From assembly GCA_019096065.1 (NCBI GenBank), contig JAGUCH010000001.1, positions 11,718,001-11,782,000 of the forward strand: 64,000 nt of DNA. Reading direction: 5' to 3'. The DNA comes from Paracyclopina nana. Its lineage: Eukaryota; Arthropoda; Copepoda; Cyclopoida; Cyclopettidae. The notes under the pieces are model-generated. The model did not search any database. It saw nothing but the letters and a program-made list of their open reading frames with translations, and was not told the DNA's origin. Both the position numbers and the translations under genes were made by a program. Below, piece after piece: positions 3,211 to 50,919 of the stretch (the stretch's first letter is position 1; every line of letters starts with the position of its first letter).

Positions 3211-3444
3211 TGTTATGGTCTGGTCGACCCTAGCACAGTATATAAGTTTGGTCTACCCTAGTCTCTCAATGCTGAAACTTCAGCTCAGCTCAGCCACATC
3301 ACCCGATTTCTAGTCAGTGTACCCTGAGATTTACAATGAATTAAACACGTGTTTCTTTACCCACGAGTAGTGGACCCATTTTCATATACATTAACCTTGT
3401 CATTTTACCATAATTTCACCATGTTGGCTACGCTGGCCATAACA
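3211..3444 (+). repeat. 5' LTR, 234 bp
   Basis: Begins TGTTATGG and ends CATAACA, so it has the usual TG...CA ends. A TATA box (TATATAA, 3239-3245) lies early in the LTR, and an ATTAAA that could serve as a polyadenylation signal lies in its second half. Identical by eye to the copies at 16576-16809 and 26840-27073. Confidence 0.95.
3239..3245 (+). promoter_or_regulatory. LTR TATA box
   Basis: TATATAA within the U3/R part of the LTR, 28 bases from the LTR start. It is repeated at the same place in both downstream LTRs. Confidence 0.6.
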
Positions 3445-3446
3445 AC

Positions 3447-3464
3447 TGGCGCCCAACGTGGGGC
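3447..3464 (+). promoter_or_regulatory. Primer-binding site, tRNA-Lys(CTT) type
   Basis: TGGCGCCCAACGTGGGGC begins two bases after the 5' LTR. Its reverse complement, ending GGGCGCCA, matches the T-arm and acceptor 3' end of animal tRNA-Lys(CTT), including the added CCA. This would prime minus-strand DNA synthesis. Confidence 0.85.
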
Positions 3465-3498
3465 CCTTGAATCCACCCTAGAAAAAGAGTCTCTTCCT

Positions 3499-6400
3499 AT
3501 GCCACGTAATCGCAAGGCCAACTCTGGAGGGAAGAAGAAAGTTGCAACTGAACCCACCAGGAAAAGCCGACGCAACCAAGGGCAAAGTCCATATGATTAT
3601 CAGGGTAAAATCAATCTAGAAATATCCCCTTATCATCAAGCCCTTAGGGATCTTCGTCAAGAAAGCGCCAAAGAATCCGATTCTGACGCGAGAGCTGCAC
3701 TGTTTCAAGACGTGGCCGCTGAAGTCTCTGATCCGGATTACGTGGAAGAAATTGTCTCCCTAATCCAGTCTCCTCAAGCTCAACGTTCTAGTCCATCTTT
3801 TGAGTCCACTCCACTCCCCTTTAAGGCTAAGAAGACGAAGATGCCTGTTCAACATACACCTCCTAATACAGGAGGAGCAGGTTACAATCCGGATCAATCG
3901 GTCTTTCCTGATACCCCCATGCCAGTAGGAAGCAGAAGATCTCATCCCATTCCAGGTGTTAATCCTGGAGGCACAGGAGCTTCTGCCTCAGGCTTTCAGG
4001 CTCCTCAGTTGCCCCCTGTTGCGCAAGGCGCACTACCCCCAAGCTCTACTCCCCATCGGGGAACTACAGGCATTGCCGGTTCATCGAAGACCACGCCTTC
4101 CAATACCACCTCTACGACTGTCATTGCAAATCCTGGATTGACTGCTGGAAAAAACACTGGAGGTTCTGTCCCAGGTCGCAATACTTCGGGAAGAGTTCTA
4201 GGCATGCAAGCAGGTAACCCTATTCCACCCCCTTCAATGGGTCCAACGATGTCATCACAAGACGAAATGGGATCTCAGTCGTCATTGGCGGCCTCCGCTT
4301 CTGCAATGCAGCCGAGAGATTCTCATGTTCCTGCTGGAGGCAAAAGAAAAGCCACAGGGGCAGGCAAGAAATCCACCACGTCAAAAGCAGCCTCTGATCT
4401 TGAATACACTCCACGGGGCTCTCGATCAAGACCCAACGCTGCCAAGAAAACGACCAAACAAATTCAAGATGCCAAGAGGGCAGAGGTAGAGGCTTTTGCT
4501 CACACTGAATCTCTGCAGAATTTGTTTCAGATCACCAATCCCTTTGTGAGGAAACATAGGGCAGCTTTCCTTGACGAGAAGACAAAGACCACCAAGGCTG
4601 ATGCAAATGAAGCTCTACAGCACTTGAGGTATTATGTCAAAGAGTATGATAGACTTTACAAGCTTTACGAAGAAGCAGTTCGCATTGCGAATTTGGAACC
4701 TTCTTCCACTCTGAAGGAAGCTTATGTCAAAAACTATCGCGCCTGCCAAACTCTGCTTCATGCCGCAAATGAGATCCTGAGAACATACAAGAGCCCCACT
4801 TCAAATGCACCCAATTCTGCAGAAGAGGATCCTCTTGCCGACTACTATCAACAATTGGAGCGTGAAGCTCAACAGACCGATCAAGAATCCAATTCCATGC
4901 AACCGGATGAGGGAAGTGGAGCTCGTGATCAACACGAAGCGAGAGTGGAGGTTGATGAAACTACGGGAGGCTGCCATGTCATCATGAATGATGGTAACTA
5001 CTATTATCTCGATGCACAGCAGGTCAACAATGCAGCCACCGCCGATTGGCTCAACAAGCAGCTGCAAGTGAGGCCAGGCACCTTTTCCCGGGAAGCTGCA
5101 ATGCAGCCGAGGCAGTCTCAGCAAGGTCAGCCCACGGCTGAACCAGAAGCTGCCGCTGGAGTGGGAAATGAGAGCCAGCAAGCGGGCTCTCGTGGAATTT
5201 CCACCTCAACGCACAACTCAGCTATGCTGGAAAGTGCGAACGGCACTTCGCGACGCGAAATGCCCATCGGAAATGTTGCCTCAAATCAACCCTCGCAAAC
5301 TAAACCTCCCGACCCTGGAGTTCTAATACGGGCAGCGAGGGATTTTGGGGGTGCAATCTCACATTTCAGGGCGTGTCATAGCGCAATGCAAAATGAGATC
5401 GAATATGGGACACCCGCTGTTGACGTTCTTGCTGACTACGGAAGTTATGCACAATCTTTGATGTCTGCGCAGGAATCTGCACAACGTTTTGAGGCTGCTG
5501 GAGGTCAATTGGATGACGCTGATCGACGCGCACTTGTACAGGGCGACCGCATGATTGAAACTCTCAGAGGAATGGCTAAAGAGTTGCCCGCAGGAGCTGT
5601 GGCATCTCGACAACCACAGGATCTTTACATGGCTAGCCAACCTCCATCTAATTCAGCCCCTCCCAATCCAACGGCACAAAGCTCGGCCCCACCCATGCAG
5701 CCACCACCTGTGAGAGGTATTGTGAGTGGAAGTGTGTATGTGCCAAGTAGACAGAACACTACAATGTCGCAAGCCGTGGTCAGTCAAGCTTCAAGCGCAT
5801 TGCGCTATCGTCCAGGATTACCAGGGGGAGCTCCACCAACTACCACAAGCACGCCCCATTTTTGGCCAACGCATTTCACGGCCCCGCCACCAACTCGTGG
5901 TAATCACCCTCATGCAATGAGTGCTGCTCCGCCACAGGTGCAACCTCCCTGCCAACCTCCGCCAAGATTTAACCAGGCGCCCATTTACAGCAATGCTGTT
6001 TCTGCCTCTATGAACCCCCTGTTTCTTCCTCACTATAGTGCGCCACCTTCACAAGGTAACAATTTTCCGGCTCCCATCCTAAGCCATGGAACCGCGTACT
6101 CTCATCCAAACCCAATTATGTCGAGTTCTCGTGAAGCAGGAGGTTATTCAGTGAGCCAACAACCCAATTTGATTCCCGGTTTCAATAACCTTGGAGGTCA
6201 GCAGCCTCCTTACTTTCAACCTAACTTGGTTCCCGCTGGACAGTATGCAAGCATGCAAAATGTAGCTCAACCTCCGCATGTGCCTTTTCAGTCTGCATTG
6301 CAGCCTCCCATGCTAAATCAACATGGGTACCCCATGAACAATCAACAATCGCAAAATGCAGCTGGAACAAATCCATTTGCCACGCCCTTTGCTGCCGCCC

Positions 6401-7815
6401 CGCCTCCGATTGGTCAGCCTGCATTGCAGGCTGGTAACCAGAGTTTTGGCCATTATCAGGCGCCTCATCTTCAAGCTGCAATGCAGCATTATGGGCAATA
6501 TGGCTATCAACCTCAACAACCAAATCGATACAAGGCTAAACTTCCTCCAGTCAACATGTACAAATTCACTGGTCATGACATCTCTGAATTTTACGCATTT
6601 AGAGATCAATTCCGTTCGTTCATACATGAAGATCCCACCATGCCCTGGCCCGAGAAATACTCGAGACTCATGGAGCTGACTCAAGGCGGACCAGCGGGAG
6701 ATTTCGTCTCGAGGCAGCCTCAAACCGAGGCTGGATATCTGTATTGCTTGGAGGCTCTGCAAGCAGATTATGGATGTCCCAAACTGCAGATGGATTGTTT
6801 GATCAGTAAATTGATGAATATGTCACCACTCGATCATGAAAACGCGTCCTCAGTCATGACAGCCAAATTGGCTGTCGGCGACATCTATCGTCATGTCACA
6901 GCTCATTGGGGCTATCCCGGCATTGCCGCCTCTATGGATTTGCATGACTCTTATATTTTCAGATCGCTTCCAATGACACTAGGAACCAGAAACGACATTG
7001 ATCAGTTCGTCAACGGAAGAAATGACGACTCCAATTCCTATCTGAACGGTCCCTTGTTCGAAAAGTGGTGTAACAAGAAATTGCATCGTCTCAGGTCTCA
7101 ATCCATTAAAGCCACCATCAACAATCCCACACCAAAGCCCAAAGCTGCAAGACCTGTTCCCGGTGCATTGCACCACTTCGAAGCAACTTCAGAGGACCTA
7201 ACAAAAGAGGAATACTTGCCTGCATACTACCCAGAGGAAGAAGCTCGTGCCTCGTCCAACGTTATGCAATTTTCCTCCAGTACGGCGTCAACTTGCAATG
7301 AAACCGAAGAAATACTAATGCCCGATGAAAGTGGTCAAGGCTTCACAATCCTAACGGTAACAAAAAATGACCAAAAATACTATGTAAAGTGCCCTGAGTG
7401 CAGCTCAACTGAGCATCGGTTTTTCAATTGTCCCAACATCTTGGCATTGCCACCCAGAGGACAGGCTCTCAAGTGTTTCAAATACAAGGCTTGTCTTCGC
7501 TGCATGGCAGGAGCCCACAACACCAGAGAATGCATCAGGAGCTGGAAATGTGAAAAATGCCAATCTGACAGTCACCACACAAGACTCCATGGAGCCTGGG
7601 ACCACAAGGACAAGAAAAATGAAACCACAGAGGGGCCAAAAAACCAAGGCAACCCGCAAAAGAACTCGAATGAGAACCTGGTTGCACAATTGGCGGAAGC
7701 TTTGCAACAATTGAACAAGAAAAATGACCCCACTGAAGACGCTTTCGAATTCTATCAAAGAAGAGGTAAGAAAGAGCAATGCTCATCTTCACTTCACTTC
7801 TGTTTCCGCCAGTGA
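3499..7815 (+). CDS. BEL/Pao gag polyprotein
   Basis: The frame is open from 3349, but upstream codons lie in the LTR and primer site, so the ATG at 3499 ('MPRNRKAN') is the likelier start, giving 1438 residues. The first two thirds are low-complexity and Pro/Gln/Ser-rich, with a basic stretch near the start. A conserved block around residues 1015-1150 ('KLPPVNMYKFTGHD', 'EKYSRLMEL') is the gag-like DUF1759 region of BEL/Pao elements. The C-terminus has three Cys/His clusters near residues 1297-1360 (CPEC...FNC, CLRC...C, CEKC...H), which are zinc knuckles for RNA binding. It overlaps pol by 92 nt in another frame. The N-terminal extension makes it much larger than a typical BEL gag. Confidence 0.9.
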   Translation: MPRNRKANSGGKKKVATEPTRKSRRNQGQSPYDYQGKINLEISPYHQALRDLRQESAKESDSDARAALFQDVAAEVSDPDYVEEIVSLIQSPQAQRSSPSFESTPLPFKAKKTKMPVQHTPPNTGGAGYNPDQSVFPDTPMPVGSRRSHPIPGVNPGGTGASASGFQAPQLPPVAQGALPPSSTPHRGTTGIAGSSKTTPSNTTSTTVIANPGLTAGKNTGGSVPGRNTSGRVLGMQAGNPIPPPSMGPTMSSQDEMGSQSSLAASASAMQPRDSHVPAGGKRKATGAGKKSTTSKAASDLEYTPRGSRSRPNAAKKTTKQIQDAKRAEVEAFAHTESLQNLFQITNPFVRKHRAAFLDEKTKTTKADANEALQHLRYYVKEYDRLYKLYEEAVRIANLEPSSTLKEAYVKNYRACQTLLHAANEILRTYKSPTSNAPNSAEEDPLADYYQQLEREAQQTDQESNSMQPDEGSGARDQHEARVEVDETTGGCHVIMNDGNYYYLDAQQVNNAATADWLNKQLQVRPGTFSREAAMQPRQSQQGQPTAEPEAAAGVGNESQQAGSRGISTSTHNSAMLESANGTSRREMPIGNVASNQPSQTKPPDPGVLIRAARDFGGAISHFRACHSAMQNEIEYGTPAVDVLADYGSYAQSLMSAQESAQRFEAAGGQLDDADRRALVQGDRMIETLRGMAKELPAGAVASRQPQDLYMASQPPSNSAPPNPTAQSSAPPMQPPPVRGIVSGSVYVPSRQNTTMSQAVVSQASSALRYRPGLPGGAPPTTTSTPHFWPTHFTAPPPTRGNHPHAMSAAPPQVQPPCQPPPRFNQAPIYSNAVSASMNPLFLPHYSAPPSQGNNFPAPILSHGTAYSHPNPIMSSSREAGGYSVSQQPNLIPGFNNLGGQQPPYFQPNLVPAGQYASMQNVAQPPHVPFQSALQPPMLNQHGYPMNNQQSQNAAGTNPFATPFAAAPPPIGQPALQAGNQSFGHYQAPHLQAAMQHYGQYGYQPQQPNRYKAKLPPVNMYKFTGHDISEFYAFRDQFRSFIHEDPTMPWPEKYSRLMELTQGGPAGDFVSRQPQTEAGYLYCLEALQADYGCPKLQMDCLISKLMNMSPLDHENASSVMTAKLAVGDIYRHVTAHWGYPGIAASMDLHDSYIFRSLPMTLGTRNDIDQFVNGRNDDSNSYLNGPLFEKWCNKKLHRLRSQSIKATINNPTPKPKAARPVPGALHHFEATSEDLTKEEYLPAYYPEEEARASSNVMQFSSSTASTCNETEEILMPDESGQGFTILTVTKNDQKYYVKCPECSSTEHRFFNCPNILALPPRGQALKCFKYKACLRCMAGAHNTRECIRSWKCEKCQSDSHHTRLHGAWDHKDKKNETTEGPKNQGNPQKNSNENLVAQLAEALQQLNKKNDPTEDAFEFYQRRGKKEQCSSSLHFCFRQ

Positions 7816-10800
7816 ATTTGATCAAAGCGAAAACCTTTCACAACTTAATGACAGTTGCAATGCAACTCTCGAGGATGTATTTGTTGACCCAAAAAATGAC
7901 GCGTCCTCGGTTTTGGATCACACAAATGGTGGGGGGGGTAACATAGATCAACAGGATAGTGCCATCATTGAGGCCAAGGTTTCCACAACCTCGTTGAAAA
8001 TCGCGAACTGCTCAAAAATCTCAGACGCAGCTGGCAAGTCTTCAAAGCAGAGCATTGCTCTAAACAACGCAACAAATAGGCCAGCTAGAAATTCTAGAGA
8101 GCTGTTGAGTTTTTGCGTCGTACCACTGTTAGTTGCCAACCCTTCGCATCCAGACGAGTATGTCAGGGTGAATGCCTTCTTGGACACGGGAGCTCAACTG
8201 TCACTTGTCTCTGAATCTCTGGCAGACAAGCTCAAGTTGGACGGTGTATCGGATGATCAGATCCTTAAGATGATTGCTACCACTGTCACCGTTACCAGCA
8301 ATGCTGTAACATTGAGGGTAAAGTCTCCCATGGGGGGACCTCATCATGATTTGGCTCTTCACACCATTGACAATCTGCCATCCACTGTGCACGTTCCACC
8401 GTTGGACAGACTCAAGAAAAAGTTCGAGTTTTTGTCCAGTCTGGAGCTGCCAACCTATGCCAGCCCTCCTCATCCTGATCTTCTTATTGGTATTGATTAC
8501 TATAATTTGATCATGCCTGAACACATCGTGCACAAGAAGGATGGAGAGCCATACATTTACGACTGTGCCTTGGGAAGAGTTGTCACCTATTATACTCCTG
8601 AGCAAGTAAAAGGGGCCTCTCAGTATGGTGTCATGTTGGGAAGCATTGCTTTGCCCACTGGAGATGAAGAAGAACCTCCTGTCCCTCCGTGCCAATTGTG
8701 TGAAGGTAAGGACATTCCGCCACCGAATGAATTGTTGAAGGCCCTTTGGGAATACGACGATCCGCTGGGACCACCGCCCCTCACAATGTTAAGTGTGAAT
8801 GACAAACGCGCACTCGACATCCTTACCACCACCATATCGCAAATTGATGGCAAACAATACCAGATGAGCCCAATGTGGAGGCCAGGAGAGCCTTATTTTC
8901 TCAATAACCGCCTTGCGGTCATGAAGGCCACCGCCGCTGTTGAAAGAAGGCTAAGATTGTTTGACATGCCCACATATGAAAAAGCCACCAAAGAGCTCAA
9001 GGAGTGGCTGGATTCAGGGTTTGTCAGGATCCTTGACCCTGAAACGGAAGACCTCGATGATGGTTATTATTTGGACTGGTTACTGGTGGAAAGAAAAGAC
9101 AAGCCTTCAATGCCCGTCAGGGTTGTGTTCGATGGATCAAGGAAACATCACGGTAAAAGCTTAAATGATGCCCTTTTGCCCGGCCCGAAGTTGCAACGCG
9201 ACGTTTTCGAGATTCTCGTCGGGGCTCGCGAAAAACCCATCATAATTGTCACGGATATAAGTAAAATGTTTCTGCGTTTTGCCTTGGATCCGGCCTCGAG
9301 AAAATTTCATAGGTTTGTGTGGCAGGGAGTTCACTATGAGGCTGTATCAGTGGTGTTTGGCACTGCAAGTGCCCCTTGCATGGCGAATTTCGCAGTCAAG
9401 CACCACATTTCAAAATATCAGGATACGCACCCATTGGGCTATCGCGTCCTCGATAACAGCCTCTACGTTGATGACGTTTTCGCCTCAGTGGAGGATGTGG
9501 CCGAAGGACGAGAGACTGTGAAGCAGATTCTTGATTTAGGGGAGTCAGGTGGGATGCCATTCAGGAAATGGGGCAGCAATGTTGCCTCAGTTCTGGATGG
9601 GATTGATGATGCCCTCAAGCTTCCTGGATTTGCCGTCAATGATGAGAAAGCTGAGGTCACTAAGGCTTTAGGCATGTATGTGGACTGCCAAGGAGATCAG
9701 ATCATATTTCAGCCACCGAGTTATGACACCATGCGCAATGCGCCACTGACTCTGAGGCTCATGGCTCAATATGTGCCAAGGCTCTTTGACCCGTTGGGAC
9801 TTCTGGCTCCAATCATTCTTCGGGGCAAACTTCTCATACAAAGAGTAATGGCGCTTCGTACCGTATTTGATGTTGATTGGGACACCGTATTTGACATGGT
9901 TGATTCAGAGGAGATTGATTTAATAACCAAAGAATGGGGCCACTATGTGGAGGAAATCTCAAAAATTGAATTAGTTCGAATTCCTCGCGCAATGCGCCAC
10001 AAACCCGCAAAGCGGATCTCCCTCCATGTGTTTTCTGATGCGAGCGAAGCGGCAAAGGGAGCTTGCGCTTATATTCGTGTGGAGTATGAAGAAGGAAACT
10101 ATGACTGCACCTTGCTCGCATCGCGACTTAAGATCACTCATCTGACTGAATCTCGCTCCATGCCAGAGCTTGAGCTTGATGGATGTGTTATGGGCTCTGA
10201 TCTTTGTGTGGATGCGATCAGATCTCTAGAGAGGGTTGATGAAGTGCATCTATGGACAGACTCGCAATGCGTTCTCACATGGATCTCCAAGCCCGCCTGC
10301 AAGTATAAAAAATATGTAGCTAGGAGAGTCACCTTGATTGTAGAAAAAACCATCAATTATAAGTGGCATCATGTTCCTGGAAAAGTCAATTCGGCCGATT
10401 TAATCACGAGAGGGACCAGCGTAGCTGATCTTGCAGATTCTGATCTCTGGATCCATGGACCAAGGTTTCTGAGGGCAAGTGACGAGCATTTTCCAAAGTG
10501 GACTCCCGAAGTAACTGATGATGAGAGAGCGGCATTGGAAAAGTATGAAAAGACTGGTCTGAGTGCAAGGCGTGCTAAGAAAGTCATAAAAAAGATTGTC
10601 TTGGTCAACCAATTTCAAAGAATGGGAGGGTGTGAGGTTCCCAGACACCTGAAGCCCACTGAAGCCATCAAAGCAAGCTGGGGTAACATGCGCAATGCGC
10701 ATTGCCATGTAGATCTCTCTCGTTTTAGCAACTGGACTCGAGCAGTCAGAGCACTGTGCTATGCCAGAAGATTTGGTTTGTTCGTGATCTACCGAGAGCC

Positions 10801-12412
10801 CGTGGACGAAAAGGGCGAAGACCTCACACCCGAAGAGCTCTATTTTGCAGAGGCTAGCATTGCTACCTGGCTGCAGCAAAAGGAATACTCAAAGGAGATT
10901 GATCACTTTCTTGAGAGAGCTATCTGGCCAAAAGGAAGTAGGCTCGCCCCCATGGATCCTGTACTTTACCCTGGTGGAGAACTGAGGACCAAAGGAAGGC
11001 TCGATGTCTCGCCAGTTCAGTGGATAGGAAGAAGACAATTGATCGTACCAGGTGCTGGGAGAAGGTTGATTCTGGAAGACTACCATAAGAAGCTCGGGCA
11101 CGGATTGGGGAGGCTGCGTTATGTAAGCGAAGCACTAATGAAATATTGTATTCCAGGCGCAAAGCGCATCATGACTGAAATCCTGAACAACTGTGCGAAA
11201 TGTGCGAGGCACAAATTGGTGGCATTGCCACCTCATATGGGCCAACTTCCCCCACACATGGTGCCCTTGACAGAATTTCTGCCCTTCAAATTTACAAGCT
11301 TCGATATGTGTGGTCCATTCGCAACCCAGTTCAACCGTTCGCAGTACAACATGTACGTGGTGGTCTTCATTTGTCTACACTCGAAAGCAATTCACTGCGA
11401 AGAGCTTTACGATATGACCACTGAAAATTTGATGCGAGCCTTGGAGATGTTTGTCGCCAGAAGAGGATGTCCCCACACCTTGAGAAGTGACAATGGAAGC
11501 AACTTCTTGGGCTGCAGAGAAGCCATCAGAACCAATCCCCGCTACCAAGAGCTGCTGGAAAAATTGCAAGTTATCGATTGGGAAAGATTAAGACAATATG
11601 GGGGGAGAATCGGGGTAGTCCAATGGACGCTTTCACCTCCTTTCTCGCCCAACTTCAATGGTTTGGCTGAATCAGCCATAAGGATCTTCAAGAGAGCCCT
11701 CTACCGGGAATTCTCTGGACGTGTCACGGATCTTGAAGACTTTCGCTACATTGTAATAAAATCTGAGGGTTTCGTCAATGGCAGGCCAATTGGAGAATTA
11801 GATGGTTATTTTCTCACCCCTAATCATTTTCTGACACGCGGACCACCAGGGGAAGTACTTCCGGTCATTGACCCTGAGCAACTCAAAACCCTTGAGGCAA
11901 GGTATCGCACAATTGAGGCTGCATTGCAGTCTCTATGGGATTTTTGGACCACTGAATGGGTGGAGCAATTGAAAAAGATGCCAATCTGGCAGCACCATAG
12001 AAAAACTTTGAAGACGGGGGATGTGGTGGCCGTGTTGGAGAAGCCTCAATTCCACAAGAGATTTTGCTGGCCTTTGGGGATTATACACAAGGCCATTCGC
12101 GATCAAGATGGAGAGTGCAGACGAGCCATTGTCAAGATCGTCCCGCCAGGAGAAGTCGAGCCAGTTTATTACGAAAAATCTGCGCAATTTCTCATTCCCC
12201 TCAACGTGTTCAGAGAATCAGATGAGTTAATGGTCTACAACAAGGTAGGTGAATCTATTTCACCCGACTTAGCACATTTGGCTGACGAAAAGGATTGGGA
12301 AAGTTTAGAGAGATACATGGCTGCAATGCAGGCTTCTCACAATACACAGGACGCTTATGATGTGCAGCCGCCCATACTCTCCAATCGCACTGTCACCAAA
12401 GGCAGTGTTTAA
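7724..12412 (+). CDS. BEL/Pao pol polyprotein, upstream copy
   Basis: An open frame of 1562 codons in the +1 frame relative to gag. Domains in order: aspartic protease with 'DTGAQLSLVS' near residue 154; reverse transcriptase around 440-680 with 'YVDDVF' near 581; RNase H with 'FSDASEAAKGACAY' near 767 and 'WTDSQCVLTW'; integrase with an HHCC zinc domain near 1120-1165 ('CAKCARHK') and DDE catalytic blocks at 'SFDMCGPF', 'LRSDNGSNF' and 'NGLAESAIR' (about 1193-1315); and a DUF5641-like C-terminus near 1427 ('LKTGDVVAVLEKP'). All catalytic motifs look intact. Expression from gag would need a +1 frameshift, or another route, within 7724-7815. Compared with the downstream copy it differs mainly by a 6 nt in-frame indel near 8805 and one substitution near 10505. 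Confidence 0.95.
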   Translation: MTPLKTLSNSIKEEVRKSNAHLHFTSVSASEFDQSENLSQLNDSCNATLEDVFVDPKNDASSVLDHTNGGGGNIDQQDSAIIEAKVSTTSLKIANCSKISDAAGKSSKQSIALNNATNRPARNSRELLSFCVVPLLVANPSHPDEYVRVNAFLDTGAQLSLVSESLADKLKLDGVSDDQILKMIATTVTVTSNAVTLRVKSPMGGPHHDLALHTIDNLPSTVHVPPLDRLKKKFEFLSSLELPTYASPPHPDLLIGIDYYNLIMPEHIVHKKDGEPYIYDCALGRVVTYYTPEQVKGASQYGVMLGSIALPTGDEEEPPVPPCQLCEGKDIPPPNELLKALWEYDDPLGPPPLTMLSVNDKRALDILTTTISQIDGKQYQMSPMWRPGEPYFLNNRLAVMKATAAVERRLRLFDMPTYEKATKELKEWLDSGFVRILDPETEDLDDGYYLDWLLVERKDKPSMPVRVVFDGSRKHHGKSLNDALLPGPKLQRDVFEILVGAREKPIIIVTDISKMFLRFALDPASRKFHRFVWQGVHYEAVSVVFGTASAPCMANFAVKHHISKYQDTHPLGYRVLDNSLYVDDVFASVEDVAEGRETVKQILDLGESGGMPFRKWGSNVASVLDGIDDALKLPGFAVNDEKAEVTKALGMYVDCQGDQIIFQPPSYDTMRNAPLTLRLMAQYVPRLFDPLGLLAPIILRGKLLIQRVMALRTVFDVDWDTVFDMVDSEEIDLITKEWGHYVEEISKIELVRIPRAMRHKPAKRISLHVFSDASEAAKGACAYIRVEYEEGNYDCTLLASRLKITHLTESRSMPELELDGCVMGSDLCVDAIRSLERVDEVHLWTDSQCVLTWISKPACKYKKYVARRVTLIVEKTINYKWHHVPGKVNSADLITRGTSVADLADSDLWIHGPRFLRASDEHFPKWTPEVTDDERAALEKYEKTGLSARRAKKVIKKIVLVNQFQRMGGCEVPRHLKPTEAIKASWGNMRNAHCHVDLSRFSNWTRAVRALCYARRFGLFVIYREPVDEKGEDLTPEELYFAEASIATWLQQKEYSKEIDHFLERAIWPKGSRLAPMDPVLYPGGELRTKGRLDVSPVQWIGRRQLIVPGAGRRLILEDYHKKLGHGLGRLRYVSEALMKYCIPGAKRIMTEILNNCAKCARHKLVALPPHMGQLPPHMVPLTEFLPFKFTSFDMCGPFATQFNRSQYNMYVVVFICLHSKAIHCEELYDMTTENLMRALEMFVARRGCPHTLRSDNGSNFLGCREAIRTNPRYQELLEKLQVIDWERLRQYGGRIGVVQWTLSPPFSPNFNGLAESAIRIFKRALYREFSGRVTDLEDFRYIVIKSEGFVNGRPIGELDGYFLTPNHFLTRGPPGEVLPVIDPEQLKTLEARYRTIEAALQSLWDFWTTEWVEQLKKMPIWQHHRKTLKTGDVVAVLEKPQFHKRFCWPLGIIHKAIRDQDGECRRAIVKIVPPGEVEPVYYEKSAQFLIPLNVFRESDELMVYNKVGESISPDLAHLADEKDWESLERYMAAMQASHNTQDAYDVQPPILSNRTVTKGSV

Positions 12413-12708
12413 ATCCAATCGACAAAACGTAAAAAATATGGCGCATTGCGCACAACACTCTAGTCAAAATATGTAAATGCATTGCTCGTTCATAAAATAA
12501 GTTGCGCATGACTCTGCTCTCATTTAGCATCTCAAAATTATTGTTATATGTTGCGTGATTTCGCATTGCGATGTTGCGCGAGGTTTCCGCGGAAAGTTTT
12601 CTTGCGTTGCAAAAATGAGAAACCAGTTTATTGACTTCCGTTTCTCACCACGCATTGTTCATCAACAAAAGCAAATAAAATTGCCATCGTCGGAAAAGTG
12701 AATTCCTT
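12413..12708. other. Spacer between pol and third ORF module
   Basis: About 300 bp without coding potential. It holds three GCATTGC motifs (12443, 12479, 12564), so the motif is not limited to coding DNA. The same stretch recurs at 22673-22967 with one base deleted. Confidence 0.6.
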
Positions 12709-13125
12709 ATGGAAAATAGTGTCCCAATTGGGGGGACCATACTGTCCCCCACCCCTTTGGAGGTTGAAGGCCAGCCTCCCGTGCAAGGCCCGTCGATTGA
12801 GGTCAACGAGTGCAAAGAAAATGCAGCGGTCATTGAAGAATTTGACAATCTCCGCGGTCAACACCGAGGCAGCATTGCTGTCCGATCAACAGGTAAAATT
12901 GAGTCTAGCATTGCTACTCATACTCCCTCCCCATCAACTGCCCCGCCCACAATAGAAGAAAAAATGGAAACTGATCAGCCGCAGCCTCAACAATCTTCTC
13001 CTGGTTACACCCCATCTGAAATGTCAGTCGGCTCACCATCGAGCGTGGTCCATGAAGGTAACAAGTATACTAGGGTCCGAAAGTGGAGACGAACTCAACC
13101 TTCACGCGGAGGCCAGCGAGGCTGA
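12709..13125 (+). CDS. Leader ORF of third module, upstream copy
   Basis: 138 codons opening 'MENSVPIGGTILSP', Pro/Ser/Thr-rich, with no recognised domain. It overlaps the next frame, which opens at the ATG at 13052. Identical in the downstream copy (22968-23384). It may be a separate small protein or the N-terminus of the following ORF joined by a +1 shift. The overlap contains AAGGTAAC, which resembles a splice donor. Confidence 0.5.
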   Translation: MENSVPIGGTILSPTPLEVEGQPPVQGPSIEVNECKENAAVIEEFDNLRGQHRGSIAVRSTGKIESSIATHTPSPSTAPPTIEEKMETDQPQPQQSSPGYTPSEMSVGSPSSVVHEGNKYTRVRKWRRTQPSRGGQRG

Positions 13126-16058
13126 TTTTGGGCTTCTCGAGGAGGACGAGGAGGATGGGGAGAAACAGAAGAAAGCTGGCTCTCCTGTCAAAAGCGCCCC
13201 GGCCTCCAGGAGCTCGTCGCATCGGCGCGACGATCACCAACGTGATCGAGAGCGCCATGGAAGAAGGTCGAGATCCTCTCCCACGCCATCTTCCTCCAGG
13301 TCTTCGTCCTCAAGAAGAGCACCGCTTGAAAGAACCAACCTCTCCACCTTCAAAATACCCCGTTTACCAAGACGTGATCGACGTGAAGATGCAAGGAGAG
13401 ATAGAGAGGTTGCCAGGAGCTCAGTATTCTCTCGGTTGGGCAGTCGACCACAAATCCCTGAAGAGGTGGAAGAAACTTCAGCGGGCGATCAGGAGATGGA
13501 AGTTGATTTTGGGAGGTTTTTCCCCTTGGGAGCGTGGTTTTTCAATCTTTAAAGATGAAACCGGAAAAGTATGGCCAAATAATCTGCATCGTTTGTTTTC
13601 AGGACTCGGTCTACCCTCAAAACACGAGGAGAGGAGAGCAATGCTCGCTGACCATCTACGAGTCCTTGGGATGGCCATGAAGGCCACCACCTTTGTCTTT
13701 GAGGATGAAATGGAACACCTCGCCGGGGATCAGCTGTTGAAGCATTATTGCGACCCCAGTTTGGCTTTTCTAGCCCATTCCTGGTCTTATGGGCCACCCG
13801 ACCCGGAGGACCCAAGGGACCACGCCTCCAGGATCGCTGACCCCGCCTATGCAGCCCGGACTGACCACACCCGCATTGCGGCACTTGTGGCCGGCACTCC
13901 ACCTGAAGTGGTGATGGAAGTCTGCCATCCAAAGGCTGCCAAGGTCTATGAGAGGTACGAGTTCAGCTGCATCTTTGCCACCCCACCCGTGCACCCGTTG
14001 AAGAGGGGCCCTCTGGATGGAGCTCAGCTCGAGGCCGCGAAGGTTGTCTGGGAAGCCAGGAAAAGGTTTGCCAAGATCATCGCTTTGGGCATGTTCAGAA
14101 GCATTCCCCCCAATGAGGACGAATGTTTGAGGCAAGTTTTGTCTCTGGCACCCTCTATGGCGGGTGAGGAGGTTCCTGAGTGGCTCACTCTTTATTGGCA
14201 CCACTTCAGCCAGAATCCATCTGTGGCTATTATGGCCGACCCATTTCATGAGCCAGATCTGCTCATCGCAGCGCTTCGCACCACTGCCATTGGTGCTCCC
14301 GCATTGCGGCCTCCACCACCAACTGGAGGAGATCCTCAGCCTACATGCCCTCGAGTGGAAGCAATGCTTCGAGATCCGCACTGCAATGCAGAATGCCCCG
14401 CCCTCAACTGTGCCATCCATCGTGTGCCAGAAGGGCCTCACGATGCACAAGTTCGAGGAGAAAAAGGAGAGCATTGCTACTCCACCTTCAGCCTCCGTGA
14501 GGCCATTGAGGCCATCAAACTGAAGGCTGGGCCCTTTGATTGCCGTGGATCTGGTGGCAAGAGGAATGTCCTCGTCCTTGAGAGGGACGACCAGTGGCCC
14601 GCCTTGGAAGCAATGCTTGAGGACAAGTACTCCTTCTTCAGCGACATCGATGCCTGGACGGCCATGACTAGTCACATGTACAGTTGGACTGTGCCAGCTC
14701 TGGAAAGGGAGAAGTTGACGACCAATGGCAAGCCCAATGAAGGATGCTTCACGCTGCTTGGAGTGGGGAGCCTCACTGGCACGCTTCTCATCATTCAGTG
14801 CAACTATGGCGGCACTTCGCAGCAATATTTTGGTGGTGCCAAAATCCCGAAGAAGATCATTGATCTTCTGGAGTCGCCTTCCATTCGGGTCACTGGCTTC
14901 AATATCGGCGAGGAGAAGCGATATGCTGATATTGGCATCGAAATTCGTGCCAAGTGCGAAGCCAATTTGGTGGGCATTGCCCTCTTTCCACAGGAAGGAG
15001 TCTCCCGCGGCCATGAAGACCAATGTCACCTTCATGGCTGACAAACTGGGCTCTGAGGCCGTGCCGGTCATGGTGACATCTTCCCGAGGTGGAGCCAAGG
15101 TTCAAGTTGAACCTCCGAGGAAGATCTTCCAATACAAGAGGGACGCCGATGACTACAGCGTCTCATACAAGAAATGGTCCTCCCAAATGCAAATGTATGT
15201 GTGGATCAATCACGCCATCGCTGCGGCCTCGGTCGTCACTCTCGCGGTCAGAGGAATGCTGAGACATGGACTTGGCTTGGATGCTGACGCATTGCGTCAC
15301 ATCCATTTCTACCTGGATCGGGTCAGGAACAAGCGAAGTTCTGGCCAACTTGCAAAAACGGAGGAGGAGATGCGACCATTCAATAAGAAAGAGTTGCCCA
15401 CTTCGTCCTCGCATTGCGAGGACGGGCAAGTTGCCCTCTGGATGTGGCTGCAGGAGAACAAGGCCACCTGCATCAATGGCATCGTGGCTACACGCACCTA
15501 CTTGCGTAAGGGTTCGCGGCGCTATGCGCTCGACCTACATGCGGTTTCCAAGAAGTTGGCGCAAGACTTTCTCGCCATCGTGCGGCGGAGCCCTGGCAAG
15601 CTCAATTGGAATGACGTCATTGACATTGTATTCCACATGGGGCGCATTGCGCCCCACTTTTGTCGACGCTGTGGATCCTTCGATCACGAGATTGGGGCCT
15701 GCAATGCAGGCCCAGTGCGCTGCATTTACCCGCTGTGCGGGTCTTCGGGCCACACTGTCATGGTGTGCGAGCTCCTCATGACCCGCTGCGAGCTCTGTCA
15801 AGAGCTAGGCATCGCCCCGAGCATCACAGCTATGAGGGCTCCCAAGGAAAGCCTTGGATGGTCCTCCTGGAGGAGGCCGCCCTATGCAGCCTACTCAACA
15901 TCAAAGGATTGCAGCTCCATGAAGGCTTCCAGCTGCGTCTCACTCGCGAAGAAGATCGAGTGCTCCTTCTGCCCTACAACCGGCTTGTGCAAGAAGGAAA
16001 TGCCACCCGTTTTGTGTTGGACACACGCCATGTGGCCTTCGCAGCCAAGTGGCCTTGA
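13052..16058 (+). pseudogene. Third ORF of the BEL element, broken copy
   Basis: This stretch matches the intact 1003-codon frame at 23311-26322, but is interrupted by three small length changes: two bases missing near 13512-13520 (shorter G and T runs), two missing near 15003, and one missing near 15808. Each shifts the frame, so the longest readable pieces are partial. One substitution (C here, T downstream) lies near 14083. Because the length changes sit in homopolymers or short repeats, consensus error is as likely as real decay. Other-frame ORFs of 440-650 codons over this stretch are shadows of the GC-rich codon usage. Confidence 0.75.
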
Positions 16059-16065
16059 AGACCTC

Positions 16066-16270
16066 AGCGTGGTCCAAGGGGGGACAACTGTTATGTTCTG
16101 GTCCGCCCGCCCCCGTTTCTCCCGCTCATGGACAACTACGCCTGCTCTGCTCAGTCTGCTGTTTTTGTGCCAACTCACCGCGTTTTCTTTAGTACTGAAC
16201 AAGAAGCCATTGAATAAACCCAAGTTTACTGCCAATTCTCTATATTTTATGTCACCATTTTGCTATTACA
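16066..16270 (+). other. PPT-like tract followed by diverged LTR-like sequence
   Basis: A purine run (AAGGGGGGACAA) just after the end of the third ORF is followed at 16089 by TGTTATGTTCTGGTC, which resembles the start of the element's own LTR (TGTTATGGTCTGGTC). The next 180 bp contain AATAAA and end near TTACA. This looks like the 3' end of a related element fused inside this one. It recurs at +10,264 in the downstream copy. Confidence 0.4.
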
Positions 16271-16575
16271 GTTATATGAGATGAACTTCTTGAGCATTGC
16301 TCATTTGCATCCTTCCTTGCCATTGCAAGAAGGCTGCTCCATTTAGGCCAGAAAGGAGGCCTTCCTCTCCACAAGCTTTGCTTGTCTTGTCTTTGGCATT
16401 GCCATCCTGGATTGAATCCTATCCTGGGCTGCCATCCTGCCTTGTTAGCTTGCCCCTTGCTGGAAAGTAAGAGTTAGGTTAGTTAGCATTGCTACTTGTC
16501 TTCGCATCGTATCGCGATCATTGTCATCTAACACCGGTTCAAGCCTCGTTGGGTTGCAGAACATATCAGTTTTTC
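16271..16575. other. Non-coding spacer before the 3' LTR
   Basis: About 300 bp without coding potential and with three GCATTGC motifs (16293, 16396, 16486). The bases directly before the LTR (ATCAGTTTTTC) are not purine-rich, so the usual polypurine tract is missing from its expected place. Confidence 0.55.
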
Positions 16576-16809
16576 TGTTATGGTCTGGTCGACCCTAGCA
16601 CAGTATATAAGTTTGGTCTACCCTAGTCTCTCAATGCTGAAACTTCAGCTCAGCTCAGCCACATCACCCGATTTCTAGTCAGTGTACCCTGAGATTTACA
16701 ATGAATTAAACACGTGTTTCTTTACCCACGAGTAGTGGACCCATTTTCATATACATTAACCTTGTCATTTTACCATAATTTCACCATGTTGGCTACGCTG
16801 GCCATAACA
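16576..16809 (+). repeat. 3' LTR of the full-length element
   Basis: 234 bp, identical by eye to the 5' LTR at 3211-3444, and followed by the TGAG target duplication. Confidence 0.95.
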
Positions 16810-18073
16810 TGAGAGCTTAGAAGCAAGCCGTTCGCGTTGGGCGGAATATTAGTCGATTTCCATGCTCCTATAGTTAAGTGCTGCTGAGTTAGTCTCTGGT
16901 TTGGTTGTATGTAGTGTTGCAGAAAAATAGGATTTGGTTCTAAAGTTTACTACTGCTAAACCAAATATTTGGCAGCTTTCTTGTTTTAACTATTGGAAAG
17001 CTTTCGTTTGTAGCTATCGTAATTGGTGTTGGGTTTGTACAGACGTATGTATGCCATCTCGTTCCAGAGATACTAGACAAAATAGCTGACTCTATTTCGA
17101 TTTTTTTTTGCTCTGAAAAATCCTTTTTAGTCTAGATAGGCAGTCCCCTTTTCCATCAATTTGGGTAATGTGTTGCTGAGCGAAACGCTTTACCCTATTT
17201 TGTATGATTTTGCTTTCCTAATAAAATTCAGGTGATTCGACTTTAAAATCCCTTTTCAATTCGGCTTTAAAATCCCCCCTAAATTCGATCTTAATACCGG
17301 TACCTGCTAACTTTATATAAAAAGTTAGCCCTTTTGATTTTAAGAGGGGTCTTTGAAGCTCTACTTAGCGAAAAAAGCACGCCGAGGAGGGATAGGCCAG
17401 GATTTTAAAACTACCATCAAACGAGCCCTTGGGACATAAGCTTTCAGAAAATACATAGGTTTAGGGGTGGTTGACGAAGTCTAGGTTAGGTTTTCTCTCA
17501 AGTCAATGTGGCGGCTTGATGGCCTTGGTCTCTTCACATGTGATTCTTAGGCATGTGAGTTGGTCCCTATTGGCGCCAACCTCTTGCGTTGACCATTATG
17601 CTTGCTTTTCTGCATTGTCTTGCGCAACTTTTTGCGCTATCGGCTTGCAATTCCATGGTAAGCTTCATTCGCTTTAAAATTTGGCTTCCGATTTTGCGGT
17701 CAAAACAAGAGAATTAATAAGTTATTTTTTTGCTTTTCCTTATTGCTTGTGTACTAATTTCCAACGATTCCGTTTGCCAGCACAGCTATTCGAGCTTAGT
17801 GATAAATATTTTGTAGGATATGGATCGTCAAGTAGCATGCGCAATTTTGTGCGCGCGCAGTTGATCTCAACCGGCCTTCAAAGGCCTGGTCACGCCCTCC
17901 TTGCGTATGATTTCTCTGAAAAGGCTCAAATACGATATTTAGCCATTGGGTTTGTTGTTTTGTGGCCTTGGAAGAAGGCTGCTCACATGTGATCCTCAGG
18001 CATGTGTGTGACTTGCGAGTCCCAATTTACGCGAATGAGCTGCTGTACGTGCAGTGTAAGGTCGGATCAATAC
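16810..18073. other. Host flank, first copy (sequence upstream of nervous wreck)
   Basis: 1.26 kb of non-element DNA that recurs at 27074-28337. It holds a short inverted repeat (GCTAACTTT...AAAGTTAGC, 17306-17329), three CTTTAAAATCCC- or GATTTTAA-like repeats near 17240-17345, and two imperfect 24 bp direct repeats (TCACATGTGAT..., 17534-17557 and 17983-18006). No supported gene; the short frames here look non-coding. In the unduplicated ancestor this was the upstream region of nwk. Confidence 0.6.
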
Positions 18074-21000
18074 GATCAAAGCGAAAACCTTTCACAACTT
18101 AATGACAGTTGCAATGCAACTCTCGAGGATGTATTTGTTGACCCAAAAAATGACGCGTCCTCGGTTTTGGATCACACAAATGGTGGGGGGGGTAACATAG
18201 ATCAACAGGATAGTGCCATCATTGAGGCCAAGGTTTCCACAACCTCGTTGAAAATCGCGAACTGCTCAAAAATCTCAGACGCAGCTGGCAAGTCTTCAAA
18301 GCAGAGCATTGCTCTAAACAACGCAACAAATAGGCCAGCTAGAAATTCTAGAGAGCTGTTGAGTTTTTGCGTCGTACCACTGTTAGTTGCCAACCCTTCG
18401 CATCCAGACGAGTATGTCAGGGTGAATGCCTTCTTGGACACGGGAGCTCAACTGTCACTTGTCTCTGAATCTCTGGCAGACAAGCTCAAGTTGGACGGTG
18501 TATCGGATGATCAGATCCTTAAGATGATTGCTACCACTGTCACCGTTACCAGCAATGCTGTAACATTGAGGGTAAAGTCTCCCATGGGGGGACCTCATCA
18601 TGATTTGGCTCTTCACACCATTGACAATCTGCCATCCACTGTGCACGTTCCACCGTTGGACAGACTCAAGAAAAAGTTCGAGTTTTTGTCCAGTCTGGAG
18701 CTGCCAACCTATGCCAGCCCTCCTCATCCTGATCTTCTTATTGGTATTGATTACTATAATTTGATCATGCCTGAACACATCGTGCACAAGAAGGATGGAG
18801 AGCCATACATTTACGACTGTGCCTTGGGAAGAGTTGTCACCTATTATACTCCTGAGCAAGTAAAAGGGGCCTCTCAGTATGGTGTCATGTTGGGAAGCAT
18901 TGCTTTGCCCACTGGAGATGAAGAAGAACCTCCTGTCCCTCCGTGCCAATTGTGTGAAGGTAAGGACATTCCGCCACCGAATGAATTGTTGAAGGCCCTT
19001 TGGGAATACGACGATCCGCTGGGACCACCGCCCCTCACAATGTTAAGTGTGAATGACAAAGCGCCAAGCACTTTCGACATCCTTACCACCACCATATCGC
19101 AAATTGATGGCAAACAATACCAGATGAGCCCAATGTGGAGGCCAGGAGAGCCTTATTTTCTCAATAACCGCCTTGCGGTCATGAAGGCCACCGCCGCTGT
19201 TGAAAGAAGGCTAAGATTGTTTGACATGCCCACATATGAAAAAGCCACCAAAGAGCTCAAGGAGTGGCTGGATTCAGGGTTTGTCAGGATCCTTGACCCT
19301 GAAACGGAAGACCTCGATGATGGTTATTATTTGGACTGGTTACTGGTGGAAAGAAAAGACAAGCCTTCAATGCCCGTCAGGGTTGTGTTCGATGGATCAA
19401 GGAAACATCACGGTAAAAGCTTAAATGATGCCCTTTTGCCCGGCCCGAAGTTGCAACGCGACGTTTTCGAGATTCTCGTCGGGGCTCGCGAAAAACCCAT
19501 CATAATTGTCACGGATATAAGTAAAATGTTTCTGCGTTTTGCCTTGGATCCGGCCTCGAGAAAATTTCATAGGTTTGTGTGGCAGGGAGTTCACTATGAG
19601 GCTGTATCAGTGGTGTTTGGCACTGCAAGTGCCCCTTGCATGGCGAATTTCGCAGTCAAGCACCACATTTCAAAATATCAGGATACGCACCCATTGGGCT
19701 ATCGCGTCCTCGATAACAGCCTCTACGTTGATGACGTTTTCGCCTCAGTGGAGGATGTGGCCGAAGGACGAGAGACTGTGAAGCAGATTCTTGATTTAGG
19801 GGAGTCAGGTGGGATGCCATTCAGGAAATGGGGCAGCAATGTTGCCTCAGTTCTGGATGGGATTGATGATGCCCTCAAGCTTCCTGGATTTGCCGTCAAT
19901 GATGAGAAAGCTGAGGTCACTAAGGCTTTAGGCATGTATGTGGACTGCCAAGGAGATCAGATCATATTTCAGCCACCGAGTTATGACACCATGCGCAATG
20001 CGCCACTGACTCTGAGGCTCATGGCTCAATATGTGCCAAGGCTCTTTGACCCGTTGGGACTTCTGGCTCCAATCATTCTTCGGGGCAAACTTCTCATACA
20101 AAGAGTAATGGCGCTTCGTACCGTATTTGATGTTGATTGGGACACCGTATTTGACATGGTTGATTCAGAGGAGATTGATTTAATAACCAAAGAATGGGGC
20201 CACTATGTGGAGGAAATCTCAAAAATTGAATTAGTTCGAATTCCTCGCGCAATGCGCCACAAACCCGCAAAGCGGATCTCCCTCCATGTGTTTTCTGATG
20301 CGAGCGAAGCGGCAAAGGGAGCTTGCGCTTATATTCGTGTGGAGTATGAAGAAGGAAACTATGACTGCACCTTGCTCGCATCGCGACTTAAGATCACTCA
20401 TCTGACTGAATCTCGCTCCATGCCAGAGCTTGAGCTTGATGGATGTGTTATGGGCTCTGATCTTTGTGTGGATGCGATCAGATCTCTAGAGAGGGTTGAT
20501 GAAGTGCATCTATGGACAGACTCGCAATGCGTTCTCACATGGATCTCCAAGCCCGCCTGCAAGTATAAAAAATATGTAGCTAGGAGAGTCACCTTGATTG
20601 TAGAAAAAACCATCAATTATAAGTGGCATCATGTTCCTGGAAAAGTCAATTCGGCCGATTTAATCACGAGAGGGACCAGCGTAGCTGATCTTGCAGATTC
20701 TGATCTCTGGATCCATGGACCAAGGTTTCTGAGGGCAAGTGACGAGCATTTTCCAAAGTGGACTCCAGAAGTAACTGATGATGAGAGAGCGGCATTGGAA
20801 AAGTATGAAAAGACTGGTCTGAGTGCAAGGCGTGCTAAGAAAGTCATAAAAAAGATTGTCTTGGTCAACCAATTTCAAAGAATGGGAGGGTGTGAGGTTC
20901 CCAGACACCTGAAGCCCACTGAAGCCATCAAAGCAAGCTGGGGTAACATGCGCAATGCGCATTGCCATGTAGATCTCTCTCGTTTTAGCAACTGGACTCG

Positions 21001-49565: not shown

Positions 49566-49607
<42 letters not shown>

Positions 49608-50221: not shown

Positions 50222-50263
<42 letters not shown>

Positions 50264-50877: not shown

Positions 50878-50919
<42 letters not shown>

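What the first reader, a model, noticed from the sequence alone, without database searches (positions are those of the whole stretch)
3211..16809. 47 dispersed GCA(A/T)TGC palindromes with compensating flanks inside one retrotransposon
By hand I count 47 GCATTGC or GCAATGC words inside the element, starting at 4070, 4303, 4682, 5098, 5383, 5797, 5990, 6295, 6421, 6478, 6920, 7164, 7444, 7776, 7857, 8052, 8298, 8643, 9735, 9989, 10264, 10692, 10699, 10857, 11222, 11921, 12323, 12443, 12479, 12564, 12872, 12908, 13638, 13873, 14301, 14361, 14383, 14471, 14610, 14974, 15289, 15411, 15644, 15701, 16293, 16396 and 16486. Chance predicts fewer than two in 13.6 kb. In 44 of them the outer bases are complementary although their identity varies (A..T, T..A, C..G, G..C), with up to 7 pairs at 15411 and 6 at 6421, 15644 and 15701. 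They occur in all codon frames of three ORFs and in non-coding spacers, but not in the LTRs or the host flank, so protein coding does not explain them. In conserved pol blocks (for example the RNase H 'DSQCVL') they are built by codon choice, not insertion. Conserved core plus compensating flanks suggests selection on a DNA palindrome (a dimeric protein site or cruciform) or on an RNA hairpin with a CAUUG/CAAUG loop. Both orientations occur, which favours DNA.
Basis: seen in the sequence. Interest (0 to 1): 0.93.

Follow-up and report, generated by a model that had tools for sequence, protein, structure and literature searches.

The report
Retrotransposon RNA studded with lineage-specific hairpins
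The repeated palindromes are small RNA hairpins scattered along a BEL/Pao retrotransposon, and related elements in the same genome carry their own versions of the loop, as if each RNA bore a private tag that its own proteins could read.

Summary
In detail: 47 GCAWTGC words (44 at the stated positions, 3 off by one), flanks paired in 44 of 47 against 1 of 13 elsewhere in the window. Codon-preserving shuffles never reach the counts. The preferred DNA-palindrome reading fails. The repeated unit is a hairpin of four Watson-Crick pairs closing an AAU/AUU loop: 51 in this element, about 2 expected. In related BEL/Pao lineages of the same genome it is replaced by other hairpins, mostly with loops that are not self-complementary and sit on the sense strand: CAG/CAU/CAA, CAC, CAA, GWC, GGC, and tetraloops GAAA and GCUA. 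Loop type follows the reverse-transcriptase tree. Sites turn over between lineages while density stays about 1-4 per kb. A third ORF (RS-rich, three zinc-knuckle-like motifs, no relatives found) lies downstream of pol in 31 of 33 close relatives and 7 of 10 of the next group, but was found in none of 28 elements of a clade whose three members read lack the hairpins; two hairpin lineages lack it too. Best explanation: many equivalent, lineage-specific sites by which an element protein (ORF3, or Gag) recognises its own full-length RNA, for export or packaging. Binding is inferred, not shown. Nine literature searches gave no precedent in retrotransposons.

The parts
3211..16809 (+). BEL/Pao LTR retrotransposon, copy 1 (LTR to LTR)
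   Evidence: LTRs by repeat search; Peptidase_A17, rve, DUF5641 and DUF1759 above their curated cut-offs, RVT_1 and Integrase_H2C2 slightly below
16576..27073 (+). Copy 2, sharing the middle LTR; shorter inside (LTR spacing 10,264 against 13,365); 37 AWU hairpins in its interior
3211..3444 (+). 5' LTR, 234 bp, identical to 16576-16809 and 26840-27073; TGAG stands at both outer edges of the whole array (possible 4-bp target duplication)
4301..16494 (+). Array of 51 hairpins: 4 Watson-Crick pairs + AUU (31) or AAU (20) loop. Loop starts run from 4305 to 16488 (full list); closing pair C-G in 44 of 51, second pair G-C in 45 of 51, pairs 3 and 4 variable
3340..7815 (+). ORF1 (Gag): DUF1759 at about 6577-6894 and three zinc motifs at about 7390-7590; 14 AWU hairpins
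7715..12412 (+). ORF2 (protease, RT, integrase); 19 AWU hairpins
12413..13073 (+). Spacer with 4 AWU hairpins (6.05 per kb)
13074..16284 (+). ORF3 region of copy 1, open in two overlapping frames (13074-15041 and 14719-16284), i.e. disrupted here
23215..26322 (+). ORF3 of copy 2, one open frame of 1035 codons: RS/R-rich N-terminal part (about 23392-23664), three zinc-knuckle-like motifs (residues 904-959, about 25924-26091); candidate hairpin-binding protein
   Evidence: no Pfam, no PDB, no relative in the protein search (limited: 7992 best candidates, words from the first 500 residues)

Best explanation
The palindromes are dispersed RNA hairpins (4-bp stem, 3-base loop AAU/AUU) in the sense transcript of a BEL/Pao retrotransposon. 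They are kept by selection, largely through synonymous codon choice, as many equivalent binding sites for an RNA-binding protein encoded by the element, most likely the ORF3 product (arginine/serine-rich N-terminal part, three zinc-knuckle-like motifs), with the zinc-motif part of Gag as the alternative. The protein would read the loop plus the closing pairs and need four stem pairs; many bound copies would mark the full-length RNA as self and promote its export or packaging. Related co-resident lineages have their own loop codes. Shown by sequence: the hairpins, the excess over codon shuffles, sense-strand specificity in sister lineages, loop type following the RT tree, turnover of sites with preferential retention of hairpins, co-occurrence with ORF3. 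Inferred: protein binding, which protein binds, and the step served.
For: Counts and shuffles. Strand-specific, non-self-complementary loops in sister lineages. Per-locus codon shuffles (37 loci, 300 shuffles each): in 25 of 37 loci no shuffle matched the commonest triloop. Stem length: with three inner pairs given, pair 4 is made in 57-100% of sites and pair 5 in 10-71%, by locus (26 loci). G-U enriched at stems with one non-Watson-Crick pair (57 of 247 against 15.6% background, p = 0.002) while A-C is not (47 of 247, p = 0.56), as expected for sense RNA rather than cDNA. Conservation: hairpin kept in the aligned lineage in 258 of 622 comparisons against 214 of 1154 for hairpins with other loops (c1; without the near-duplicate L036 193 of 490 against 113 of 821), 348 of 708 against 194 of 1044 (c2). 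Alternative Watson-Crick pairs among lineages that keep the hairpin: c1 8 in 24 sites against 4 in 40 sites with other loops. Predicted local formation 0.65 for the 51 AWU sites against 0.34 for 73 other triloop hairpins of the element. Loop type follows the RT tree. ORF3 within 9 kb downstream in 31 of 33 RT loci at 61% identity or more, 7 of 10 in the next group, 0 of 28 in the group represented by L061-L063, which lack enriched loops.
Against: No binding data. Hairpins and ORF3 mark largely the same clade, so their association may reflect one shared origin; the ORF3 search scored only the best candidates (44 of 240), so absences are not proof. L066 (CAG) and L067 (GCUA; L085 is 98.5% identical, not independent) have hairpins but no ORF3 match; L057 (weak loops) and L058 (34 of 300 shuffles reach it) have none either. 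A more sensitive search did not complete. Two 1.7-kb non-autonomous elements with LTRs 98.7-99.6% identical to this one have no AWU hairpins inside, so the sites seem not to be required for a short RNA. In c2 alternative pairs are no commoner than in the control (9 in 24 sites against 9 in 30), and the share of two-sided changes that stay paired is only slightly above control (0.51 against 0.40; 0.49 against 0.42). The G-U signal is absent in c1 alone (13 of 83). Folding prediction does not separate strands well (AWU sites 0.65 sense, 0.56 antisense; L056 0.45 and 0.49). Four-pair triloop hairpins are weak alone (mean -2.3 kcal/mol). The ORF3 structure prediction failed (mean pLDDT 33).
Confidence: 0.6

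Rival explanations
1. The hairpins are dispersed packaging signals read by Gag (capsid/nucleocapsid), as in packaging-signal-mediated assembly of single-stranded RNA viruses; ORF3 is incidental. (Overlaps the best explanation, where Gag is the second choice of reader.)
For: Dispersed stem-loops with a shared recognition motif and otherwise variable sequence are what is described for such signals (passages of PMC6281560 and PMC3662417). Gag has three zinc motifs. Lineage-specific loops fit self-packaging among co-resident elements. L066 and L067 have hairpins without a detected ORF3.
Against: Hairpin-poor L061 and L064 also have Gag zinc motifs (by eye), so these alone do not predict hairpins. 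Mini-elements with nearly the same LTR lack AWU hairpins. Confidence lowered from 0.3 in the draft only to agree with the split given in the full report.
Confidence: 0.2
2. The hairpins are distributed response sites for a Rev/CERV-like role of ORF3: nuclear export or splicing control of unspliced genomic RNA. (A specific form of the best explanation.)
For: ORF3 lies downstream of pol, is RS-rich and has zinc motifs; hairpins cover most of the transcript; mini-elements, which have lost gag-pol, lack them. The C. elegans Cer1 protein CERV, with a cysteine-rich region, is required for export of unspliced RNA (title, abstract start and passages of PMC10309623).
Against: No splice sites were mapped; no localisation data; the hairpins lie throughout, not in one response element; ORF3 is not shown to be related to CERV; L066 and L067 have hairpins without a detected ORF3.
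Confidence: 0.3
3. A host protein that reads hairpin shape (for example a LIN41/TRIM71-type NHL protein, which binds stem-loops with exactly three loop bases) selects the hairpins.
For: LIN41 recognises tri-loop stem-loops, found among 11-base structure motifs (passages of PMC5908797), the same size as here.
Against: Loop sequence and even loop length (GAAA, GCUA tetraloops) differ between lineages in one host; LIN41 needs three-base loops and represses its targets.
Confidence: 0.07
4. A DNA-level palindrome: binding site of a dimeric protein, or a cruciform.
For: In this lineage alone both orientations occur (29:18); the same holds for GAC/GUC in c4 (16 and 20).
Against: Sister lineages use loops that are not self-complementary, mostly on one strand; the outer pairs of each half vary as long as they pair.
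Confidence: 0.02
5. A mutational or codon-usage by-product without function (for example template-switch repair of near-palindromes).
For: Hairpins with odd loop lengths are generally commoner than even ones in this element (stem 4: 124, 93, 82 for loops 3, 5, 7 against 52, 49, 56 for 4, 6, 8), partly because one palindrome is counted at several loop lengths; compensated changes in c2 do not exceed control.
Against: Loop-specific, lineage-specific and (in most lineages) sense-strand-specific enrichment beyond codon shuffles; preferential retention.
Confidence: 0.03

Closest known systems
Dispersed RNA packaging signals of single-stranded RNA viruses (MS2, STNV; HBV pregenomic RNA; PMC6281560 and PMC3662417, passages read)
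   Same: Many small stem-loops across the genome with a shared recognition motif in variable sequence
   Different: Here in an LTR retrotransposon, about 50 sites in 13 kb, a 4-bp stem, and the loop switches in sequence and length between related lineages of one host; no coat-protein contact is shown
LIN41 response element (NHL-domain target; PMC5908797, passages read)
   Same: Small triloop stem-loop recognised largely by shape
   Different: Host regulator that represses mRNAs; strictly three-base loops; here loop codes differ by lineage and include tetraloops
CERV of C. elegans Cer1 (PMC10309623, passages read) and retroviral Rev-type accessory proteins (recalled, from no call)
   Same: Element-encoded accessory protein with cysteine-rich motif acting on full-length RNA
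   Different: No relationship of ORF3 to CERV is shown; no dispersed hairpin code appears in the passages read
VANDAL/VANC anti-silencing motifs of Arabidopsis (recalled, from no call)
   Same: Family-specific short motifs dispersed in a mobile element and read by the element's own protein, diverging between families
   Different: DNA motifs of a DNA transposon, not RNA hairpins
HIP1 palindromes of cyanobacteria (recalled, from no call)
   Same: Highly iterated short palindrome across coding sequence
   Different: DNA-level and genome-wide; here sense RNA of one element clade

Membership tests
BEL/Pao LTR retrotransposon (Belpaoviridae) | Pao-type peptidase A17, RT and integrase in one pol | tested here: met
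   Peptidase_A17 4.9e-33, rve 3.7e-8; RVT_1 3.9e-6 and Integrase_H2C2 2.4e-5 lie just below their curated cut-offs
BEL/Pao LTR retrotransposon (Belpaoviridae) | Flanking LTRs and short target duplication | tested here: met
   Three identical 234-bp LTRs; TGAG at both outer edges, read by eye
Packaging-signal-mediated RNA assembly | Multiple dispersed stem-loops with a shared loop motif | tested here: met
Packaging-signal-mediated RNA assembly | Stem-loops bind the coat/Gag protein and drive assembly | not testable with these tools
   No binding or assembly data
DNA palindrome / dimeric-protein site | No dependence on strand | tested here: not met
   Sister lineages: CAG 67 against CUG 10, CAA 19 against 0, CAC 11 against 0, GCUA 8 against 0; strand-symmetric only in c1 and most of c4
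LIN41 response element | Loop of exactly three bases | tested here: not met
   Met in this element, not in tetraloop lineages L049 (GAAA) and L067 (GCUA)
LIN41 response element | Binding by an NHL domain | not testable with these tools
   No binding data; no NHL protein was looked for in this genome
Rev/CERV-type export system | Accessory ORF beyond gag-pol with RNA-binding motif | tested here: inconclusive
   ORF3 has an RS-rich part and zinc motifs but no recognised family
Rev/CERV-type export system | Needed for nuclear export of unspliced RNA | not testable with these tools
   No expression or localisation data

The most novel reading that the evidence does not exclude
Co-resident retrotransposon lineages in one genome have evolved mutually distinct 'RNA barcodes': dozens of equivalent hairpins per transcript with a lineage-private loop, read by a co-diversifying ORF3 protein, so that each element handles only its own RNA; competition or parasitism between lineages drives the switching of loop sequence and loop length.
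Probability: 0.4. Interest if true: 0.95.

Novelty: new variant of a known kind. Interest (0 to 1): 0.87.

Why it matters
How a retroelement singles out its own RNA among related co-resident elements is an open question. Here a natural series of related lineages, with different loop codes on the same scaffold and most with a divergent ORF3, makes it directly testable: swap protein and loop in a binding assay and read specificity. It would also extend dispersed multi-site RNA recognition from RNA viruses to LTR retrotransposons, and offers a set of small hairpin-protein pairs that may be mutually orthogonal.

Tried and rejected
DNA palindrome/cruciform: rejected by strand-specific loops in sister lineages. 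Kissing loops: AAU with AUU and GAC with GUC could pair, but in the CAG, CAC, CAA, GAAA and GCUA lineages the complementary loop is rare or absent, so not general. Five-base loop: closing pairs other than C-G occur (7 of 51), so a triloop fits better. Hairpin on cDNA: G-U, not A-C, is enriched at near misses, a modest effect absent in c1 alone. A search for long repeats, Rfam and a tRNA scan of the window do not explain the sites. IMG/VR viral contigs: one scan, no relatives. ORF3: no relatives in the protein search (limited), Pfam or PDB; structure prediction from one sequence was useless (mean pLDDT 33), so no fold search was run. Nine answered literature searches of one open-access library gave no report of dispersed, lineage-specific hairpins in a retrotransposon; I saw listings only, except passages of four papers. 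Gypsy/Copia elements of this genome and BEL elements of other species were not tested.
Full report
WHAT IS THERE. The window (G000 contig C1, 11718001-11782000) holds a BEL/Pao retrotransposon as a tandem of two copies sharing an LTR: identical 234-bp LTRs at 3211, 16576 and 26840, with Peptidase_A17, RT and integrase in ORF2 and DUF1759 in ORF1. The host looks like a copepod: a host gene in the window encodes a BAZ1A-like protein whose best match that names an organism is from Lepeophtheirus salmonis (50% identity), after closer but unnamed, mostly environmental proteins. The species was not determined.

CHECK OF THE OBSERVATION. 47 GCAWTGC words were found in 3211-16809, 44 at the stated positions and 3 shifted by one. 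44 of 47 have a complementary flanking pair; of 13 words elsewhere in the window outside the two element copies, 1 has (p = 4e-9). Shuffling synonymous codons within each ORF (1000 times) never reached the observed counts. The host part of the window shows little excess of AWU hairpins (9 in 36.9 kb, 6.2 by simple expectation).

THE UNIT IS A HAIRPIN. Counting any 3-base loop closed by four Watson-Crick pairs, the element has 124 such hairpins (53 by simple expectation), of which AUU gives 31 and AAU 20, each with about 1 expected; no other loop exceeds 5. Ten of these 51 lack the GCAWTGC core and 6 of the 47 words are not complete 4-bp hairpins. The closing pair is C-G in 44 of 51 and the second G-C in 45 of 51; pairs 3 and 4 use all four types. 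Pairing drops after the fourth pair (26 loci). Density is 3.0 per kb in ORF1, 3.9 in ORF2, 6.1 in the spacer, 3.7 in the ORF3 region and 10.2 in the last 294 bases before the LTR (3 hairpins). Predicted local formation is better than for the other triloop hairpins of the same element (mean 0.65, n = 51, against 0.34, n = 73), but the antisense strand of the same sites scores 0.56, so folding alone does not tell the strand.

RELATIVES DECIDE RNA AGAINST DNA. The RT fragment has 111 matches in the genome (best candidates only). I read 4.1 kb around 30 of them and around 12 more, and 3.1 kb around a further 8. RT 72% identical or more (c1; 8 loci pooled): AUU 57 and AAU 42, with 2.6 and 2.3 expected. 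RT 64-68% (c2; 8 loci pooled): CAG 67, CAU 26, CAA 22 against 2.7, 2.3, 3.2 expected, while the antisense loops CUG, AUG, UUG number 10, 2, 3 (5 of the CUG are in L039). L043/47/48/53 pooled: CAA 19 and CAC 11, antisense 0 and 0. L056-L060 pooled: GUC 20, GAC 16, GGC 8. L066: CAG 7, CUG 2. Two groups use a longer loop: GAAA tetraloops (L049 7, L043 5, L044-46 4 each, L048 3, L047 1, L053 0; antisense 0; L044-46 have identical RT and count as one case) and GCUA tetraloops (L067 8, antisense 0; found again in L085, which is 98.5% identical and so no independent case). Loops that are not self-complementary and sit on the sense strand cannot be a DNA palindrome. L061-L064 show no clearly enriched loop. 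Of the other distant loci, L065 has a hint of five-base loops beginning GAA (6 against 0.75), L079, L080 and L084 have weak excesses reached by 27, 7 and 11 of 200 shuffles, and L081-L083 and L086 nothing notable; many tests were made, so these weak ones carry no weight.

STATISTICS PER LOCUS. Codon-preserving shuffles of 37 loci (300 each): the commonest triloop was matched by no shuffle in L026, L031-L034, L038, L039, L041-L043, L047, L048, L050-L056, L059, L060 and L066 (some of these are related copies); by 1 in L057, 4-10 in L035-L037, 34 in L058, and 47 or more in L044-L046, L049, L061-L065 and L067, of which L044-L046, L049 and L067 carry tetraloops instead.

EVOLUTION. On the RT tree (37 rows) loop type follows clades: AWU; CAG/CAU/CAA; CAC; CAA with GAAA; GAAA; GWC/GGC; long branches make the deepest joins unsure. 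Among lineages that are mostly 23-39% diverged in DNA (L035 and L036 5%), sites turn over: in c1 21 of 45 and in c2 16 of 40 site columns occur in one lineage only. Yet aligned hairpins are kept more than twice as often as hairpins with other loops. Alternative Watson-Crick pairs among lineages that keep the hairpin: 8 in c1 and 9 in c2; against hairpins with other loops this is an excess in c1 (8 in 24 sites against 4 in 40) but not in c2 (9 in 24 against 9 in 30). The share of two-sided changes that stay paired is modestly above control (0.51 against 0.40; 0.49 against 0.42). So covariation proper is weak evidence; loop specificity, codon shuffles and retention carry the case. Similar density with turnover of positions points to many equivalent sites rather than single fixed structures.

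A CANDIDATE READER. ORF3 (1035 codons, one open frame in copy 2 at 23215-26322) has no Pfam, PDB or database relatives in the searches made (one search was limited to 7992 candidates and words from the first 500 residues) but has an arginine/serine-rich N-terminal part and three zinc-knuckle-like motifs near the C-terminus. Searching the genome with it (49 matches, 44 of 240 candidates scored) and assigning matches to RT loci by position (109 of the 111 RT matches, two overlapping fragments dropped): 31 of 33 loci with RT identity of 61% or more have ORF3 within 9 kb downstream. In the next group (RT scores 390-428 bits, 48-53%, containing L056-L060 and L079) 7 of 10 have it. In the group of 28 that follows (343-381 bits, 43-49%) none has; only three of the 28 were read (L061-L063), the rest assigned by score alone. 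Below 48% overall 1 of 59 has a match, a degraded relic. One ORF3 match had no RT locus in the list. Against: L066 and L067 have hairpins but no ORF3 match; L057 and L058 have no match either. Because hairpins and ORF3 track one clade, the association amounts to few independent events. Zinc motifs in Gag are visible by eye in every lineage whose Gag end I could read, including hairpin-poor L061 and L064, so these alone do not explain who has hairpins.

MECHANISM. Best reading: an element-encoded RNA-binding protein, ORF3 more likely than Gag, binds dozens of loop-coded hairpins along the full-length sense RNA, marking it as self. Which step this serves is open. Packaging is supported by analogy with dispersed packaging signals (passages read). 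Export is supported by the position and composition of ORF3, by the precedent of CERV in Cer1 (passages read), and by two 1.7-kb non-autonomous elements with nearly the same LTR that lack the hairpins and have a tandem array of mostly 19-22-bp units inside: a short RNA apparently can be copied without them.

NOVELTY. Dispersed loop-coded hairpins are known as packaging signals in RNA viruses; I know of none in LTR retrotransposons, and none with loop codes that switch between co-resident lineages. Nine answered searches of one open-access library gave no such report, which is weak evidence of absence.

Noticed in passing
window 3211-27073: Two element copies in tandem share the middle LTR, with TGAG at both outer edges: LTR-LTR recombination or a tandem insertion. 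Copy 2 is about 3.1 kb shorter inside; ORF3 is one open frame only in copy 2.
   Followed up: partly
C1:14528985-14530676 (L010, L011) and C2:5917980-5919750 (L009, L014): Two 1.7-kb non-autonomous elements with LTRs 98.7-99.6% identical to this element and an unrelated interior made largely of 19-22-bp tandem repeats; no AWU hairpins.
   Followed up: partly
C1:4773412-4788425 (L012, L013, L036) against L028-L030: LTRs seem to be exchanged between lineages: an element with RT only 73% identical carries practically the same LTR, while no LTR match was listed near loci with identical RT (L028-L030).
   Followed up: no
window 23215-26322 and other matches in the genome (49 listed, including this one): ORF3: a large protein of unknown family, RS-rich with three zinc-knuckle-like motifs, downstream of pol in dozens of BEL elements of this genome; one limited search of a 5.8-billion-protein database found no relative.
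   Followed up: partly
window 49516-50934, minus strand: Three tandem U6 snRNA genes, spacing 656 bp.
   Followed up: no
L065: Possible further loop type: five-base loops beginning GAA (6 against 0.75 in codon shuffles).
   Followed up: no
L035-L037: A c1 subclade that may also accept CAU loops beside AAU/AUU, with CAU hairpins at two aligned positions where sisters have AAU.
   Followed up: no
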